The notes under the pieces: generated by a model
What the model was told of the DNA's origin: nothing
Seen by the model: the letters and a program-made list of their open reading frames with translations, nothing else
Databases searched by the model: none
IMG/VR virus record: IMGVR_UViG_3300020204_000253
Location: 1-29,988 of that record
Origin: a virus
Length of the DNA: 29,988 bases
Reading direction: 5' to 3' (one strand)
Made by a program: the position numbers and the translations under genes
Shown: piece after piece, positions 1 to 15,338 of the stretch
Layout: each line of letters opens with the position of its first letter
Position numbering within the stretch: position 1 is the first letter of the stretch

Positions 1-501
1 TCCTACACCAGTGGCTCCAGTAAACCCAGTAGATCCATCGAATCCAGTAGACCCAGTAAATCCAGTGGCTCCTACACCAGTGGCTCCAGTAAACCCAGTA
101 GATCCATCGAATCCAGTAGACCCAGTAAACCCAGTGGCTCCAAATAAGCCAGTAGCTCCTACACCAGTTGCTCCAGTAAACCCAGTTGCTCCAGTAAACC
201 CAGTTGCTCCAAATAAGCCAGTAGCTCCTACACCAGTTGCTCCTACACCAGTAGCTCCAGCAAATCCAGTAGCTCCAGTAAATCCAGTAAACCCAGTGGC
301 CCCTACACCAGTTGCTCCTACACCAGTTGCTCCAATAAATCCAGTGGATCCAGTAAACCCAGTGGCCCCTACACCAGTTGCTCCTACACCTGTTGCTCCA
401 GCAAAACCAGTCGACCCTTGTTTACCTGAAACTGTAGAAGTAAGGTCTGAAACTTTTACGACTGGTTTTTGTGTATTTACTGTTACTTTGATGTCTGACA
501 T
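1..501 (-). CDS. Collagen-like Gly-X-Y repeat protein, virion-associated (3' part beyond window)
   Basis: The minus strand is open from an ATG at 501 to the window edge (167 codons, no stop), so the C-terminus is missing. About 28 ordinary N-terminal residues ([15 protein letters not shown]...) are followed by uninterrupted Gly-X-Y triplets built from GATG, GSTG, GFTG, GVG and GFDG units. A Shine-Dalgarno-like AAAGGG lies about 6 nt before the ATG. Collagen-like triplets are known in phage fibres and head decorations, where they form trimeric triple helices. The gene is the last visible member of the late neck/tail block, so a fibre or appendage role is inferred. The plus-strand Pro-Val-Asn reading frame here is only its complement. 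Confidence 0.8.
2..139 (-). repeat. Tandem 69-nt direct repeat inside the collagen-like gene
   Basis: Positions 2-70 and 71-139 are two copies of a 69-nt unit (23 codons) that differ at one base. Shorter 9-18-nt sub-repeats (CCAGTGGCTCC, CCAGTTGCTCC and similar) continue to about 415. The repeat length keeps the triplet frame, so copy number could change without breaking the protein. Confidence 0.9.
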
Positions 502-5926: not shown

Positions 5927-6655
5927 ATGGCATCGTATAAAAAGTATGAAGACATTTTGAAGATCGAACTGGTGTCGCATAGCACTTCACCAGCTCCAGA
6001 GAAGTATGGTAAGGATTTAAAAGAACTAATTACCTTCTGTGCACGAGTCTCAAATCCTTCTAACCAGTCAAATATGGATACGGCTGACAAGCTAATTAAG
6101 TATCTTCTTAAGCACAAACACTTCTCGCCTTTTGAAATGGTAAATGTCTGCCTAGAGATTACTTCTACCAGAGACATCATTCGACAGATTCTTCGTCATC
6201 GTTCTTTTACATTTCAAGAATTTTCACAACGATATGCTGATCCAGTGCAGGAGCTAGACTTCTGTATTCGAGAGTGTCGGTTCCAAGATACAAAGAATCG
6301 GCAGAACTCTATCTCTATAAATGCCGCGCTACAAAATGATCAAGATTATTTTGAGCGTAATCGCATCAGTTCAATCTTCTATAATTTACAACATGAACAT
6401 ATTCAAAAATGCAAAGAAGATTATTCGTTTCTAGTGTCACATGGTGTGGCCAAAGAACAAGCCAGAGCTATTCTTCCTGAAGGCAACACAATCTCTCGTT
6501 GCTACATGAGCGGAACTCTCAGGTCTTGGCTTCACTATATAGAAGTTAGAGAGAAAAACGGTACACAAAAAGAACATATGATGATTGCTCGTGAATGCGC
6601 AAAGGTTATCTCAAAGTTATTCCCACCGATCATCGATTTACAGGAGAACATTTAA
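5927..6655 (+). CDS. thyX: Flavin-dependent thymidylate synthase ThyX
   Basis: A 242-aa protein with the ThyX signature RHRSFTFQEFSQR at residues 90-102 (RHRx7S) and the usual FSPFEMVNVCLEI and LPEGNTISRCYMSGTLRSWLHYI segments. ThyX makes dTMP from dUMP using FAD, NADPH and methylene-tetrahydrofolate and is unrelated to T4 Td (ThyA type). It is translated directly after the SNase gene (1-nt gap), and its stop overlaps the nrdJ start (TAATG), so dTMP synthesis and ribonucleotide reduction are coupled in one operon. Confidence 0.95.
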   Translation: MASYKKYEDILKIELVSHSTSPAPEKYGKDLKELITFCARVSNPSNQSNMDTADKLIKYLLKHKHFSPFEMVNVCLEITSTRDIIRQILRHRSFTFQEFSQRYADPVQELDFCIRECRFQDTKNRQNSISINAALQNDQDYFERNRISSIFYNLQHEHIQKCKEDYSFLVSHGVAKEQARAILPEGNTISRCYMSGTLRSWLHYIEVREKNGTQKEHMMIARECAKVISKLFPPIIDLQENI

Positions 6656-8004
6656 TGTCATTAGAGAATTACACTTCAGAGATCTTATCTTCGGACTTCC
6701 TTCAGAAGTATGTTGGGAAGCAGCCCGATTGGGGGTTTAGTAATCTCGGGTACATCGTCTACAAGAGAACCTATTCAAGAAAGATTGATGAGAACACCAC
6801 TGAAGAATGGTGGCAGACTGTTGCACGTTGCGTAAACGGTGCACAAAAACTAGGAGCCAAATATACTCCTGATGAGGCTCAACGGTTATATGATCTCGTG
6901 TTCAACCTGAAGTGTAACTTCGCTGGCCGTATGTTGTGGCAGCTTGGTACATCGACTGTTGATAGGTTTGGTGCCAACTCACTTCTTAACTGTTGGTATA
7001 CAGCTATTCGTAAGCCCGAAGACTTCTGTTTTATTTTTGAGAACCTCATGCTTGGGGGAGGCGTCGGCTTCTCAGTAAAACGCGAAGACGTTCACGAACT
7101 ACCAAAGGTGAAGAAGGGTGTTGTAATTGCTCATAAGCTTACTAAAGACGCAGACTATATCGTTCCCGATTCGCGCGAAGGTTGGGTGATGCTGCTTAAA
7201 AACATCCTCAATTCATATTTTGTGACAGGTAAGTCGTTTAGTTATTCAACTATTCTTGTTCGTGGCGCAGGTGAGACTATTGCTGGATTCGGCGGCACTG
7301 CTTCTGGTCCGCGTATTCTTATTGAAGGAGTGGAAAAGATCAGCAAGGTTATCCTCAATCGCGAAGGAAAGAAGCTGCGTTCTATTGATGTTCTAGACAT
7401 CGCTAACATTATTGGTTCTGTTGTGGTTGCTGGGAACGTTCGTCGCTCTGCTGAAATCGCTGTTGGTGATCCAGACGACTTTCATTTTCTACGTGCAAAG
7501 CGTTGGGATCTCGGGAACATTCCTAACTGGCGAGCCATGTCGAACAATACAATCTCGGCTGATTCTTATGAGCAAATTAGCAATACAGTATGGGATGGGT
7601 TTGAAGGCAACGGCGAACCTTATGGTCTCTTCAATCTCCCGCTAGCTAAAAAGTATGGTCGCCTTGGCGATGAACGTAAAGACGACTGCGAAGGTGTTAA
7701 TCCTTGCTTGACTGGAGATACTTTGATTACCACGGATCAAGGAGATAAGCTTCTGAAAGATATTATCTTTAATATTGAAGATACTAAGGTATTGACAATG
7801 AACACCGATACCAAAGAACTTAGTTATGAACGTCTGGTTTACCGTGGGTTGACTCAAGAGTTTGCTAATGTTATCTCTGTCAAATGCAAGGATGGTACGG
7901 TGTTGAAGTTGACTCCAAACCATCATGTCTTTGTAAAAGACAAAGGTTGGATTCCTGCTTCAGATCTAAAGAGTGGGGATAAGGTTTTCAAGGTCAAGAA
8001 ATAG
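6655..8004 (+). CDS. nrdJ: NrdJ N-extein fused to split-intein N-half
   Basis: A 449-aa product starting MSLENYTSEILSS. AGGAG lies 8 nt upstream of the ATG at 6655, and TAATG overlaps thyX. Residues 1-350 are the N-terminal half of a class II (adenosylcobalamin-dependent) ribonucleotide reductase: EEWWQTVARCVNGAQ, FAGRMLWQLGTSTVDRFGANSLLNCW, LMLGGGVGFSVKREDV, IVPDSREGW, IIGSVVVAGNVRRSAEIA, GNGEPYGLFNLP, ending CEGVNP. At C351 (codon 7705-7707) an intein begins: block A CLTGDTLITT and block B LTPNHHVFV, ending with a stop after 99 intein residues. The reductase is therefore incomplete alone. The remaining 295 residues are in the gene at 8759-9772, joined by protein trans-splicing to about 645 aa. 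Confidence 0.93.
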   Translation: MSLENYTSEILSSDFLQKYVGKQPDWGFSNLGYIVYKRTYSRKIDENTTEEWWQTVARCVNGAQKLGAKYTPDEAQRLYDLVFNLKCNFAGRMLWQLGTSTVDRFGANSLLNCWYTAIRKPEDFCFIFENLMLGGGVGFSVKREDVHELPKVKKGVVIAHKLTKDADYIVPDSREGWVMLLKNILNSYFVTGKSFSYSTILVRGAGETIAGFGGTASGPRILIEGVEKISKVILNREGKKLRSIDVLDIANIIGSVVVAGNVRRSAEIAVGDPDDFHFLRAKRWDLGNIPNWRAMSNNTISADSYEQISNTVWDGFEGNGEPYGLFNLPLAKKYGRLGDERKDDCEGVNPCLTGDTLITTDQGDKLLKDIIFNIEDTKVLTMNTDTKELSYERLVYRGLTQEFANVISVKCKDGTVLKLTPNHHVFVKDKGWIPASDLKSGDKVFKVKK

Positions 8005-8009
8005 TTTTT

Positions 8010-8017
8010 TATAAATA
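8010..8017 (+). promoter_or_regulatory. T4-type late promoter of the intein-associated endonuclease gene
   Basis: Perfect TATAAATA, 6 nt after the stop of the intein N-half gene. With T4 late spacing, transcription would begin near 8023-8024, inside the 5' arm of the hairpin at 8015-8044, so late transcripts cannot form that hairpin. Confidence 0.8.
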
Positions 8018-8044
8018 TACTTAGGGATTGGAGCCTAAGTATAT
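8015..8044 (+). promoter_or_regulatory. Start-codon-sequestering hairpin upstream of the endonuclease gene
   Basis: A perfect 11-bp inverted repeat: ATATACTTAGG (8015-8025) pairs with CCTAAGTATAT (8034-8044), with an 8-nt loop GATTGGAG. The loop carries the GGAG ribosome binding site, and the 3' arm includes the first two bases of the ATG at 8043. In read-through nrdJ transcripts this should block endonuclease translation. Confidence 0.85.
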
Positions 8045-8786
8045 GTTGACCATAGAGAACCTAGATGTAGAAAAGTTTGGTAAGATAAAGGAATGGGTTG
8101 ATGTTTTGTACTCGCATAGTCCATCAAGATGCACTATGCCAAAGTCTAAAAGACAAGAGTGGGCAGAAGCCCATCCTTTATCTTCTGATCTAGTAGAATA
8201 TATGTCCATGATATATTCCTCTGGATATGGCCTAAAGGTAATATCTAGACAGTTGGGAGTTTGTTATTCTCAGTTACGTGGTCTGTTTCAGGATCATTGG
8301 AGAATAGAAATAAACAAAGGAAATAATATTGTTTATGATAAGACCAAGCAGTTCAGATCAAAGAAGGCCAAAGAAGATCCAAACAATCCATTTAGAGACT
8401 GGACGAGTAAACAAAGTAGAGTTAAGACTAATCATGGGGTTCAGGGTTATTATATAAACAAGAAAAATCAAAAACTTTGGCTCAGATCAACTTACGAATA
8501 TATCTATTGTAAATGGTTAGACGAACATGATATTGATTATAGGTACGAGGAAAAAATTTTCCAACTAACAAACGGAGAAAAATATAAACCAGATTTTTTC
8601 ATCGGAGATTCTACTATTATTGAGATAAAAGGAAACTTTTATACAAATCGAAGATATAAAGCGGACATGCTAAAAGAGAAACATCCAGAGTTGAAAATCG
8701 TAGTTATAGATGACATCGCACAATATACAAAAAAAGGATATACACAGGAGATAAAAGAATGGAAGAAAACCAGATTATTGAATTAG
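8043..8786 (+). CDS. Free-standing PD-(D/E)xK-type homing endonuclease between intein halves
   Basis: A 247-aa protein from ATG 8043; a TTG at 8028 lies within the hairpin loop and is less likely. Segment GYGLKVISRQLGVCYSQLRGL (about residues 70-90) looks like a helix-turn-helix. The C-terminal domain has LRSTYEYIYCKWLDEHDIDYRYEEKIF, YKPDFF and IIEIKGNF, giving the PD...ExK nuclease pattern with an upstream conserved Glu. This type, including Vsr-like (EDxHD) enzymes, is known beside fractured phage genes with split inteins; I cannot separate the subfamilies by eye. It presumably cuts intein-less nrdJ to spread the cassette. The gene is visibly more AT-rich than the flanking extein DNA. Its 3' end overlaps the next gene by 28 nt. 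Confidence 0.85.
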   Translation: MLTIENLDVEKFGKIKEWVDVLYSHSPSRCTMPKSKRQEWAEAHPLSSDLVEYMSMIYSSGYGLKVISRQLGVCYSQLRGLFQDHWRIEINKGNNIVYDKTKQFRSKKAKEDPNNPFRDWTSKQSRVKTNHGVQGYYINKKNQKLWLRSTYEYIYCKWLDEHDIDYRYEEKIFQLTNGEKYKPDFFIGDSTIIEIKGNFYTNRRYKADMLKEKHPELKIVVIDDIAQYTKKGYTQEIKEWKKTRLLN

Positions 8787-9772
8787 AAGTAGAATCTATC
8801 GAAGTTGAAGAAAATCAAGATGTCTACGATTTAACTACAGAACACAATCACAATTTTTTTGCGAACGGAGTTTTGGTACATAATTGTGCCGAGATTACTC
8901 TTTCAGATAAAGAATGTTGCAACCTTTCAGAGATCTACCTTAACAACATTAGCTCGAAGGAAGAGTTGATTGAGTGTGCAACGCTCTTGTACAAGACGCA
9001 GAAAGCTATCTGTGCGATGCCGTTTATTCACCCAGAAACAACTGAGATCGTTCACAAGAACATGCGTATTGGTGTTGGAATTACTGGTATCTGTCAGTCG
9101 AAGTCGAAGCTTGAATGGCTCTCGGATGCTTATAAAGCGTTGCGTAAATTTGATAAAGTATGGTCAAAGGAAAACGGTTGGAACGAATCTATCCGTCTTA
9201 CCACAACAAAGCCTTCAGGTACTCTTTCCCTGTTAGCTGGATCTTCCCCTGGTGTTCATCCTGGATTCAGCCGCCACTTTATTCGTCGCGTTCGTATGTC
9301 TTCTTCTGATACGCTTGTTGCTACTTGCCGTGGACTTGGTTATCACGTCGAGTTTGCTAAAAACTTTGATGGCACAGAAGATCATTCCACCTGCGTTGTT
9401 TCGTTCCCCTGCTCTTTTGGAGAAGATACAATTCTCGCTAAGGACATGTCAGCTGTTGATCAGCTTGAAATGGTTAAGAAGATCCAGACGGTCTGGTCTG
9501 ACAACGCTGTTTCGGTCACTGTTTACTACCGTAAGGAAGAGCTACCCGCGATCAAGGAATGGCTGAAGGAAAACTACGCCAACTCCCTGAAGTCTGTTTC
9601 GTTCTTGCTTCATTCTGAACATGGTTTCGCACAAGCGCCATATGAAGAGATCACTGAAGAAGAATGGAAGAAGATGTCAGCAAAAGTACTTCCTCTCACG
9701 AATGTGATGATTTCCGAAGGCGCTGACCTAGAAGGTCTAGGTTGCGATCAGGGAGTCTGCCCAATCAAGTAA
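8759..9772 (+). CDS. nrdJ: Split-intein C-half fused to NrdJ C-extein
   Basis: A 337-aa product starting MEENQIIELEVESIE. AGGAG lies 8 nt upstream inside the endonuclease gene. Residues 1-42 are the intein C-half with blocks F and G (DVYDLTTEHNHNFFANGVLVHN), ending in the expected His-Asn. Residue 43 is Cys (codon 8885-8887), both the +1 splicing nucleophile and the catalytic radical cysteine in the joined NP-CAEITLSDKECCNLSE. The rest holds the class II reductase C-terminal half: TTTKPSGTLSLLAGSSPGVHPGFS phosphate-binding region and a C-terminal CDQGVC redox pair. Translation of this gene depends on its own start, so reductase activity needs both genes plus trans-splicing. Confidence 0.93.
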   Translation: MEENQIIELEVESIEVEENQDVYDLTTEHNHNFFANGVLVHNCAEITLSDKECCNLSEIYLNNISSKEELIECATLLYKTQKAICAMPFIHPETTEIVHKNMRIGVGITGICQSKSKLEWLSDAYKALRKFDKVWSKENGWNESIRLTTTKPSGTLSLLAGSSPGVHPGFSRHFIRRVRMSSSDTLVATCRGLGYHVEFAKNFDGTEDHSTCVVSFPCSFGEDTILAKDMSAVDQLEMVKKIQTVWSDNAVSVTVYYRKEELPAIKEWLKENYANSLKSVSFLLHSEHGFAQAPYEEITEEEWKKMSAKVLPLTNVMISEGADLEGLGCDQGVCPIK

Positions 9773-10560: not shown

Positions 10561-10592
10561 AAAAAGGGAGCCAAGCGGCTCCCCTTTTCTTT
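10561..10592. terminator. Bidirectional rho-independent terminator
   Basis: GGGAGCC (10566-10572), loop AAGC, GGCTCCC (10577-10583), flanked by an A-tract on the left and CTTTTCTTT on the right. It gives a U-tract in both directions and separates the plus-strand operon ending at 10555 from the convergent UvsE-type gene ending at 10591. Confidence 0.9.
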
Positions 10593-11478
10593 AGTTGTTT
10601 CGATATTTAAGTAAGGCCAACTCTTTTGCCTTTGCTTCTAGATCAATGTCACACGGTACATGCTCTACGATCTTGTTGTAAATATAATCAGCGTGTGCGC
10701 GAGGATTACCGCTGAACTCTTCGTAGATCTTCTTTGAATCTGAGTAGTGAAACAAAGGAAGCTTGTCGCGCCAAGTCTGTGCTGCGAGTAACGCTGCTTC
10801 TCTTTCTGGGACGCCTTGTGTGTGAAAAGAGTGATGAAAATAATCAAACGTAATCGGCGTTTTAATCTTTTCTGTGATATACTGGTGCAACTGTTGTACT
10901 GAGTAACAAGATCCCTTGTCGTCGTTTTCTACAACAAGTCGCTTCTGAAGATTTGGTGACAGGCGATAAAAGTTGTCGCAGAACTTGGCAGACGCTTCCT
11001 CTGAAAACGAGCAACCAATGTGGATATTCAGTGGATTCCAGTGTGAAGCTTCTAAACCCATGAGATCAAAAAACTCTGAATGTGTTTCTAGGTCTTTGAT
11101 TGCTGCCTTTACAACGTTTTCTTTCGATGACGCCAACTTAACAAAATGACTAGGATGGGCCGAAAGACGTATATTTGAAACTCTTGCCAGTGTTCCACAC
11201 TCAAGAAGAACATCAGAGATACGTTTATAATCTGGAAGGTCGGATAGGGAATATTCACTGGACCAAGGAAAGAGTTCAGAAGTGACGCGAAATACCTTAA
11301 CATTTTTCGCAGCGTTCCATTCTATAATTTTTTTTAAATCAGTAACGTTTGCCAACGCCAGTTGTGATGCATAAGTAATTCCCTTTTCAAGAAACGTGGC
11401 CTTTCGCATTGTGCGACTGGTGACTACGCCAGATTTCTGAAGCGTCAGGTTGATACAACAATATCCAAAGTTTAGCAT
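10591..11478 (-). CDS. uvsE: UV-damage endonuclease, UvsE/UVDE family
   Basis: A 295-aa protein. The ATG at 11478 gives the family N-terminus MLNFGYCCINLTLQ; a longer frame from 11538 overlaps the upstream gene. Conserved UvsE segments: TSRTMRKATF, WNAAKNVKVFRVTSELFPW, RLSAHPSHF, NIHIGCSFS, RLVVENDDKGSCYSV, ITFDYFHHSFH and LFHYSDSK. These supply the His, Glu and Asp metal ligands of its TIM barrel. The enzyme nicks 5' of UV photoproducts to start repair. T4 uses the unrelated DenV glycosylase for this, so it is a functional replacement. The start lies 4 nt after the upstream stop with no clear ribosome binding site, so coupling is likely. Confidence 0.9.
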   Translation of the reverse strand: MLNFGYCCINLTLQKSGVVTSRTMRKATFLEKGITYASQLALANVTDLKKIIEWNAAKNVKVFRVTSELFPWSSEYSLSDLPDYKRISDVLLECGTLARVSNIRLSAHPSHFVKLASSKENVVKAAIKDLETHSEFFDLMGLEASHWNPLNIHIGCSFSEEASAKFCDNFYRLSPNLQKRLVVENDDKGSCYSVQQLHQYITEKIKTPITFDYFHHSFHTQGVPEREAALLAAQTWRDKLPLFHYSDSKKIYEEFSGNPRAHADYIYNKIVEHVPCDIDLEAKAKELALLKYRNN

Positions 11479-11482
11479 TATT

Positions 11483-11851
11483 TTAGTATATACCGTCTTC
11501 TGCGTAATAGTTAAGACATTTCTTTTTGACCTTGGCAAGACAAGCGGGAATCAGCTGAGGAGGAAACATCGATACTCCGACTTCCCATGCCTTCCATTCG
11601 CTGTCTCCGCCGTCGTGAATTCTGTAGTCCATTATGTGACCGAACTCGTGAATGAGTGTTGCCAGAAGTTTATCTGCGTCTTTCTTAGGATCGTCTGCGT
11701 ATAATTCGACCAGGTCCGAGTCCAAATAAGCACACCCATTAAAAGGGAAAGGCGAAAACTTCAACTGCTTCGCCGTTCCCATGTATTCAACATCAATACC
11801 ATATTCGTTGACGTATTGTATGGCATCTAAAAGTTTTTGCCAGTTGCTCAT
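11483..11851 (-). CDS. Small HExxH putative metallopeptidase-like protein
   Basis: A 122-aa protein with LIHEFGHIMDYRI, the zinc-binding HEFGH motif at residues 68-72, after a predicted helix. The third ligand is not obvious. The N-terminal part (LLDAIQYVNEYGIDVEYMGTAK) is of unknown type. A minimal zincin fold is plausible, and proteolytic activity is not certain. It is the first gene of a two-gene leftward unit with uvsE, driven by the promoter at 11865-11893. Confidence 0.65.
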   Translation of the reverse strand: MSNWQKLLDAIQYVNEYGIDVEYMGTAKQLKFSPFPFNGCAYLDSDLVELYADDPKKDADKLLATLIHEFGHIMDYRIHDGGDSEWKAWEVGVSMFPPQLIPACLAKVKKKCLNYYAEDGIY

Positions 11852-14882: not shown

Positions 14883-15338
14883 GTGTCGCCGCGCAAGGCT
14901 ATAAAGCTTCTTGTTCGTGGTGTCGCGATTGCTGAGAAGTATTCAGAAGAAGTCTGGCGTGGCGTCACCAGCCAAATCGTGATTCCTTCAGTTGTTCGTC
15001 TGTTGAACTTCTATAAAATTCCGCATAGAATATACAGGCTATCGAAGCGAAATATTTTTGCCAGAGACAACTGGACTTGCCAATATTGTCAAACACAAAC
15101 GTTTGGTAATAGCGGTACAATCGACCACGTCATACCACGTTCGCGTGGAGGAGAATATTCTTGGGACAATTTGGTAACGGCTTGCAAATCCTGTAATTCA
15201 AAAAAGGGAAACAAGACGCCAGCCGAAGCAGGAATGAAATTGTTCAACAAATCACCAAAGTTGAACTACAGAGCAATCCTGCGAAATCTAGGAGCCTCCC
15301 GCGCAGAATGGCGTGAGTACTTGTTCCTTGGAGCCTAA
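14883..15338 (+). CDS. HNH endonuclease (5' end possibly frameshifted)
   Basis: 151 aa from a GTG at 14883. The HNH zinc-finger core has CQYC (C66, C69), IDHVIPRSRGG (D81, H82), DNLVTAC (N96) and CKSCN (C101, C104), a complete HNH motif. The N-terminal SPRKAIKLLVRG is the usual lead-in of this subfamily, whose members normally start with a segment like YEPI-x-x-VS; here that segment (YEPIQTVS) lies in frame upstream of the GTG without a start codon. An ATG at 14858 overlapping the upstream stop would reach it after a +1 shift. Probably a free-standing homing-type nuclease, placed between accessory genes and stem-loop copy 3. Confidence 0.8.
   Translation: MSPRKAIKLLVRGVAIAEKYSEEVWRGVTSQIVIPSVVRLLNFYKIPHRIYRLSKRNIFARDNWTCQYCQTQTFGNSGTIDHVIPRSRGGEYSWDNLVTACKSCNSKKGNKTPAEAGMKLFNKSPKLNYRAILRNLGASRAEWREYLFLGA

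What the first reader, a model, noticed from the sequence alone, without database searches (positions are those of the whole stretch)
6655..9772. Fractured nrdJ joined only by a split intein, with an endonuclease gene in the gap
Seen: the class II reductase is cut into two genes. The first ends in intein blocks A and B (CLTGDTLITT, TPNHHVFV) and a stop; the second begins with intein blocks F and G ending HN. The free-standing nuclease gene 8043-8786 lies between and overlaps only the second. Known: fractured phage-type genes with split inteins and Vsr-like/PD-(D/E)xK endonucleases have been described from metagenomes (NrdJ-1, gp41-1 type). Inference: a mobile trans-splicing cassette in a T4-type phage, and a possible new fast split-intein pair with 99-aa and 42-aa halves.
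Basis: partly seen in the sequence, partly recalled or inferred. Interest (0 to 1): 0.85.

Follow-up and report, generated by a model that had tools for sequence, protein, structure and literature searches.

The report
Self-joining split reductase with homing nuclease
A virus of bacteria carries its DNA-building-block enzyme gene cut in two by a selfish nuclease gene, with protein-joining tags that should weld the halves back together; this belongs to a known kind, but the nuclease family and the copy of its own predicted target placed beside its start signal look new.

Summary
The class II ribonucleotide reductase gene (nrdJ, 6655-9772) of a T4-type phage contig is cut just before its catalytic cysteine. 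The upstream part ends in a 99-aa split-intein half and the downstream part begins with a 42-aa half. A free-standing nuclease gene (8043-8786) fills the gap. Two other assemblies agree without a gap, and related phages have the uninterrupted gene. It is a distant member of the NrdJ-1 fractured-gene family; the native NrdJ-1 gene holds a homologous nuclease. The nuclease is not Vsr-like: it is T7 endonuclease I-like with an N-terminal extension. All full-length relatives found lie in split-intein gaps at this one RNR site (50 non-redundant), none in 50,697 cultured phage records. Two points go beyond what I could find described. (1) The nuclease leader carries a T4 late promoter, a start-codon hairpin and, family-wide, a reversed copy of the Asn-Pro-Cys target, degenerate at exactly the wobble positions (exact in 22 of 52 leaders, 0.2-0.35 expected), like the I-TevI operator. 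(2) Split and uninterrupted inteins alternate at the site, and one uninterrupted intein keeps the nuclease's tail, so fractures can heal. Splicing, cleavage and homing remain untested.

The parts
6655..7704 (+). nrdJ N-extein (350 aa), class II RNR (RTPR type), ends ...CEGVNP
   Evidence: PHROG 367 E 3.5e-71; RNR_Alpha and RNR-II insertion domain
7705..8004 (+). split-intein N half, 99 aa (Cys1, TPNH block B), plus TAG stop
   Evidence: intein_Nterm 2e-7 over cut-off; family invariants C1, T70, P71, H73
8010..8017 (+). TATAAATA, T4-type late promoter match
   Evidence: within 70 nt before the nuclease ATG in 10 of 30 relatives, 0.17 expected
8018..8029 (-). homing-site-like motif (reverse strand AATCCCTAAGTA), predicted operator over the predicted transcription start (~8023)
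   Evidence: in the window itself E 0.018 for the leader, one mismatch to the family motif AAYCCNTRY
8015..8044 (+). 11-bp RNA hairpin pairing the A and U of the nuclease AUG; Shine-Dalgarno GGAG (8030-8033) in its loop
   Evidence: -17.9 kcal/mol, z -4.15, 0 of 200 shuffles as stable
8043..8786 (+). predicted homing endonuclease, 247 aa: N-terminal extension with helix-turn-helix-like segment, C-terminal T7 endonuclease I-like PD-(D/E)xK domain (E152, D184, E194, K196)
   Evidence: PF05367 4.5e-10; PDB T7 endonuclease I 3.7e-5; four residues invariant in 16 relatives; AF2 pLDDT 86.6
8746..8750 (+). Shine-Dalgarno AGGAG of the C-part, inside the nuclease gene
   Evidence: sequence, 8 nt before the ATG at 8759
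8759..8884 (+). split-intein C half, 42 aa (block F, block G ending HN); its ATG is made by A + TGG of the nuclease's conserved Trp240 codon; overlaps the nuclease gene by 28 nt
   Evidence: intein_Cterm 3.8e-9 over cut-off; same ATG/TGG arrangement in 34 of 50 relatives
8885..9772 (+). nrdJ C-extein (295 aa), starts with the catalytic Cys (C+1) AEI, ends CDQGVC
   Evidence: PHROG 367 E 1.5e-63

Best explanation
This is a fractured nrdJ carrying a mobile split-intein cassette. (1) Two reductase pieces are translated separately. The intein halves associate, splice in trans and join NP to CAEI, restoring the class II reductase. (2) The gap gene is a homing endonuclease with a T7 endonuclease I-type catalytic domain. 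It cuts cassette-free nrdJ genes at the Asn-Pro-Cys catalytic motif, so that recombination copies the whole intein-nuclease unit. (3) Its expression is timed as for phage T4 I-TevI: on read-through nrdJ messages a hairpin hides the nuclease start codon, a late promoter makes a short message without the hairpin's 5' arm, and the nuclease probably represses that promoter by binding a copy of its own target placed over it. (4) The C-part's ribosome site and start codon lie inside the nuclease gene, so simple deletion of the nuclease would also break nrdJ; this favours retention. Shown from sequence: anatomy, family, empty sites, exclusive association, late promoter, hairpin, motif enrichment. Inferred: splicing, cleavage, homing, repression.
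For: Joined N- and C-exteins match uninterrupted relatives end to end (L006: 76% and 71%). By established class II RNR knowledge, all five functional cysteines and the active-site Asn and Glu are present only when the halves are joined, so neither half alone could work. Intein residues C1, TxxH, penultimate H, terminal N and C+1 are present. The nuclease has all four catalytic residues of T7 endonuclease I, invariant in 16 diverse relatives; the fold search agrees. All full-length nuclease relatives with both flanks lie between intein halves at the RNR NP|C or NPC|C/S site; short matches with only the catalytic domain have no intein. The cassette is 26-38% G+C between exteins of 45%. Late promoter in 10 of 30 leaders against 0.17 expected; hairpin z -4.15. 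Homing-site mimic exact in 22 of 52 leaders against 0.16-0.35, found again by unbiased motif search, log-likelihood 160 against 43-55 for shuffles. I-TevI precedent: PMC2988022 sections 10 and 12. No second, separate RNR large-subunit locus in 12 records checked.
Against: No splicing, cleavage or expression data. The window's own motif copy is weaker than most (leader E 0.018). Tree tests of cassette transfer between RNR types are borderline (p 0.046 and 0.043) or not significant (0.18 to 0.26). T7 endonuclease I itself is a Holliday-junction resolvase, so site-specific cutting is inferred. Records checked for a second reductase may be incomplete.
Confidence: 0.85

Rival explanations
1. The nuclease is a stranded Holliday-junction resolvase rather than a homing endonuclease, and the split intein is a fixed oddity without mobility.
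For: Its catalytic domain is of the T7 endonuclease I family, whose known role is junction resolution.
Against: The short catalytic-domain-only relatives (L070-L079) are outside inteins, while every full-length form with the N-terminal extension sits in an RNR split intein. The nuclease is broken in L064 and L068 and gone in L092 while the intein halves stay, as expected of a selfish gene. Its leader copies the RNR target.
Confidence: 0.1
2. nrdJ is a dead or dying gene broken by the insertion, and reductase comes from elsewhere.
For: Not all split RNR genes in the literature were shown to be active; for Campylobacter phage nrdA the authors leave it open (PMC3653736).
Against: Both frames are open with ribosome sites and all catalytic residues. 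The arrangement is kept in 50 divergent loci, and no second, separate reductase locus was found in 12 large records, though some matches contained only one half or were weak.
Confidence: 0.05
3. The two parts work as a non-covalent complex, as in Aeromonas phage Aeh1 NrdA split by mobE, without splicing.
For: Such assembly is known for Aeh1 NrdA-a/NrdA-b (PMC2988022).
Against: Here both parts end in conserved intein halves directly at the catalytic cysteine, and 141 extra residues would sit in the active site. Aeh1 has no intein there (my knowledge of that case, not tested here).
Confidence: 0.03
4. Assembly or sequencing artefact of a single-chain intein with an in-frame endonuclease.
For: The gene order IntN-nuclease-IntC mimics a cis intein.
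Against: Two other assemblies are gapless and identical over all three genes, and the same three-frame layout recurs in 50 non-redundant loci.
Confidence: 0.01

Closest known systems
NrdJ-1 split intein and its native locus (PDB 8ubs; L050)
   Same: Class II RNR, split intein at the catalytic Cys motif, homologous T7 endonuclease I-like gene in the gap, C-half overlapping the nuclease 3' end
   Different: Intein about 31% identical; NrdJ-1 sits at NPC|SEI, this one a codon earlier at NP|CAEI; different RNR subfamily
Fractured genes with split inteins (Dassa et al. 2009, doi 10.1093/nar/gkp095; not held here, known from memory and from citations)
   Same: Enzyme gene broken by a split intein with a free-standing endonuclease gene between
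   Different: The family named there is Vsr-related (from memory of the abstract); here the nuclease is of the T7 endonuclease I type
T7 endonuclease I (PF05367)
   Same: Catalytic domain and all four active-site residues
   Different: About 130-residue N-terminal extension; located in an RNR intein gap; presumed sequence-specific
I-TevI in the T4 td intron
   Same: Late promoter just before the nuclease gene, hairpin that hides the start site on long messages, target-like sequence at the promoter (PMC2988022)
   Different: Intein rather than intron, unrelated nuclease fold, motif in the opposite orientation to the target

Membership tests
Class 1 split intein | Cys1, block B TxxH, block F, penultimate His and terminal Asn, C+1 nucleophile, on two separate chains | tested here: met
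Class 1 split intein | Splices in trans | not testable with these tools
   needs protein expression
Fractured gene arrangement | Conserved enzyme gene broken by split intein with a free-standing nuclease gene between | tested here: met
Fractured gene arrangement | Uninterrupted homologues exist (empty site) | tested here: met
   L006-L008, L010, L012-L016
NrdJ-1 family | Homologous intein and homologous gap nuclease at the RNR NPC motif | tested here: met
NrdJ-1 family | Exactly the same insertion position | tested here: not met
   NP|CAEI here, NPC|SEI in L050
T7 endonuclease I family (PF05367) | Score over the curated cut-off and the four catalytic residues | tested here: met
T7 endonuclease I family (PF05367) | Resolves Holliday junctions | not testable with these tools
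   needs biochemistry
Vsr-like / EDxHD homing endonucleases | Vsr-type active site | tested here: inconclusive
   The fold resembles I-Bth0305I (Z 6.1) and Vsr (Z 5.2), but sequence libraries give only T7 endonuclease I and the motif is PD...ExK
Homing endonuclease | Gene lies at the predicted target and is absent from empty alleles | tested here: met
Homing endonuclease | Site-specific cleavage and gene conversion | not testable with these tools
   needs enzyme and mixed infection
I-TevI-like regulation | Late promoter plus start-site hairpin | tested here: met
   (sequence and prediction only)
I-TevI-like regulation | Operator resembling the homing site at the promoter | tested here: met
   family-wide; the window copy is weak (E 0.018)

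The most novel reading that the evidence does not exclude
A T7 endonuclease I-derived family of homing endonucleases has specialised on the radical-cysteine motif of class II reductases, reading the Asn-Pro-Cys codons with tolerance at the wobble positions. It represses its own late promoter through a reversed copy of that target. It lives in a fracture that can form and heal, with split and single-chain inteins interconverting at one site.
Probability: 0.5. Interest if true: 0.72.

Novelty: new variant of a known kind. Interest (0 to 1): 0.6.

Why it matters
NrdJ-1 is one of the split inteins reported as exceptionally fast (PMC7090010); this places it in a large natural family of 60 related inteins at one site, a ready source of new pairs. 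It predicts the DNA target and the self-control of an uncharacterised nuclease family. It also offers a place to watch genes break and heal: intact nuclease, broken nuclease, nuclease gone but still split, and single-chain intein occur side by side at the same codon.

Tried and rejected
Vsr-like nuclease: not supported by sequence. Relatives in bacterial and archaeal genomes: one scan, none. Relatives in cultured phages: four nuclease queries gave only short endonuclease I genes of cyanophages P60 and Syn5. Formal proof of cassette transfer between RNR types: the three closest reductases (window, L026, L029) are not sisters in the best intein and nuclease trees, but the tests are not significant (p 0.18, 0.26); for the NrdJ_Z group they are borderline (0.046, 0.043). 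A nuclease-tail vestige in single-chain intein L101 looked good by eye but did not score in the right frame and is dropped; only L157 is kept (20.9 bits, and part of that stretch overlaps homologous IntC sequence, with three or four codons, ELK(W), outside it). First translation of the N intein half used an off-by-one start; the correct start is 7705. Paper search found no report of T7 endonuclease I-like homing endonucleases, but Dassa 2009 could not be read, so part of this may already be noted there.

Full report
Observation. The window holds, on the + strand, thyX (5927-6655), then nrdJ in two pieces. The first piece (6655-8004) is a class II reductase N-part of 350 aa followed by a 99-aa intein N half (7705-8001) and TAG. 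The second (8759-9772) is a 42-aa intein C half followed by a 295-aa C-part starting CAEIT. The nuclease gene (8043-8786) lies between them and overlaps the second piece by 28 nt. Profile searches support each part. Two other IMG/VR assemblies match over 7.4 and 12.7 kb at 99.92% without gaps, so a frameshift error is excluded. The contig is a T4-type phage: sliding clamp, both clamp-loader subunits, primase, tail sheath stabilizer and head closure; clamp loader 57% to pelagiphage HTVC008M.

Reductase logic. By established class II RNR knowledge the C+1 residue (8885) is the radical cysteine in NPCAEI, and the remaining reactive cysteines lie partly upstream (LLNCWY) and partly downstream (KECCNL, CDQGVC). 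Neither half can work alone. Phages L006-L008, L010 and L012-L016 carry the same gene uninterrupted at this codon, which gives the empty site. Twelve large records carrying this gene showed no second, separate reductase locus, though they may be incomplete and in some only one half was detected or the match was weak.

Nuclease. Sequence libraries place its C-terminal half in the T7 endonuclease I family and phmmer finds T7 endonuclease I in the PDB. E152, D184, E194 and K196 are invariant in 16 diverse relatives and correspond to the T7 catalytic residues (my knowledge: E20, D55, E65, K67). The predicted model (mean pLDDT 86.6) resembles PD-(D/E)xK nucleases: TnsA Z 7.8, I-Bth0305I Z 6.1, Vsr Z 5.2, T7 endonuclease I by Foldseek. 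It is therefore of the T7 endonuclease I type, not Vsr-like.

Family. Scans with the nuclease and with the intein N half gave a clean picture. Every full-length nuclease relative with both flanks lies between split-intein halves in a ribonucleotide reductase, either at NP|C or one codon later at NPC|C/S. Short matches with only the catalytic domain (L070-L079) have no intein. Inteins of the same scan in other genes (L105, L117, L119, L125) have other gap genes. L050's N half is identical to the NrdJ-1 intein of PDB 8ubs and its gap gene belongs to this family, so the window is a distant NrdJ-1 relative (intein 31%, nuclease 39%). The window's extein is closest to L026 and L029 (56%, 53%), but its intein and nuclease are closest to loci in distant reductases (L028, L027, L020; exteins 22-27%). 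This suggests a mobile unit, though tree tests are only borderline. Base composition changes at the junctions: 45% G+C in the exteins, 26-38% inside.

Overlap. In 34 of 50 relatives, the window included, the start codon of the intein C half is made by A plus the TGG codon of the nuclease's conserved Trp in the EWK motif. The C-part's ribosome site therefore lies in the nuclease gene, which ties the two together.

Control elements. Between the N-half stop and the nuclease start lie TATAAATA (8010-8017), the T4 late promoter consensus, and an 11-bp hairpin (8015-8044) that pairs part of the start codon and carries the Shine-Dalgarno in its loop (z -4.15). TATAAATA lies within 70 nt of the nuclease start in 10 of 30 relatives against 0.17 expected. 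A message started at about 8023 would lack most of the hairpin's 5' arm. This is the layout described for I-TevI, I-TevII, I-TevIII, segB and mobE (PMC2988022 section 12).

Homing-site mimic. The codons for Asn-Pro-Cys give the pattern AAYCCNTGY. Its reverse complement occurs exactly in 22 of 52 leaders, against 0.35 in shuffles and 0.16 from surrounding DNA. With one mismatch allowed it is in 36 against 6.6. A motif search without prior pattern returned the same thing, AAYCCNTRYRNY on the reverse strand, in about 84% of leaders, with log-likelihood 160 against 43-55 for shuffles. The leader motif varies at exactly the three wobble positions of Asn-Pro-Cys although it is not coding. It abuts or overlaps TATAAATA where both are present. 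I-TevI likewise binds a homing-site-like operator over its late promoter (PMC2988022 section 10). The mimic and both junctions of the occupied gene lack the GAR that follows the core in the empty site. I infer that binding needs the core and cutting needs the downstream part, which would spare the cassette and the operator. In the window the copy is 8018-8029, one of the weaker ones (E 0.018 for the leader).

Fracture and healing. Of 60 non-redundant inteins of this family at the site, 50 are split with an intact nuclease, 2 split with a broken one (L064, L068), 1 split with the nuclease gone and a 28-nt gap (L092), and 7 are single-chain mini-inteins of 137-158 aa without nuclease. The single-chain forms are scattered as tips beside split ones (L089 with L093, L082 with L028, L157 with L147 and L152). 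In L157 the alternate frame still reads ILELKWWKQKRLLNLES-stop where its split sisters have the nuclease tail. That argues for healing from the fractured state in this case. It rests on one locus, and part of the stretch is shared with the intein itself.

Verdict. The finding is real and belongs to a known kind, fractured genes with split inteins. What appears new is the T7 endonuclease I-type nuclease family confined to one RNR codon, its target-mimicking leader, and the traces of healing. Dassa et al. 2009 could not be read here, so some of this may have been noted there; from memory its abstract mentions gene control elements brought in with the endonuclease gene.

Noticed in passing
L017:1881-5490 (IMGVR_UViG_3300037042_006844, 303 kb): nrdJ broken into three pieces by two split inteins: the NP|C one with the nuclease, and a second at KPSG with only about 30 nt between its halves.
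   Followed up: partly
L024:5154-6035 and L031:3303-3620: L024 also ends its nrdJ C-part in a second split-intein N half after KPSG, so three-piece reductases recur; L031 shows a similar intein N-half match downstream.
   Followed up: partly
L045:2-1380: The piece upstream of the NP|C intein starts with another split-intein C half, with a gene before it that looks like the Vsr-related type: two fractures with two nuclease families in one gene.
   Followed up: no
L009:2-3172: nrdJ with single-chain inteins at two sites, one at the same NP|C site; both carry insertions that look like LAGLIDADG endonucleases by eye.
   Followed up: no
L092:717-1169: Split intein at the RNR site whose nuclease is gone; only 28 nt separate the two halves, and the halves stay in separate frames.
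   Followed up: partly
window 10591-11538 (-): Gene that looks like a UV-damage endonuclease (UvdE type) by eye; not tested.
   Followed up: no
window 14883-15338 (+): Probable HNH endonuclease beside three tRNA genes (Ile-TAT, Lys-TTT, Thr-TGT), perhaps another mobile nuclease.
   Followed up: no
window 1-501 (-): Collagen-like GATG(F)TGxTG repeat protein cut by the contig end.
   Followed up: no
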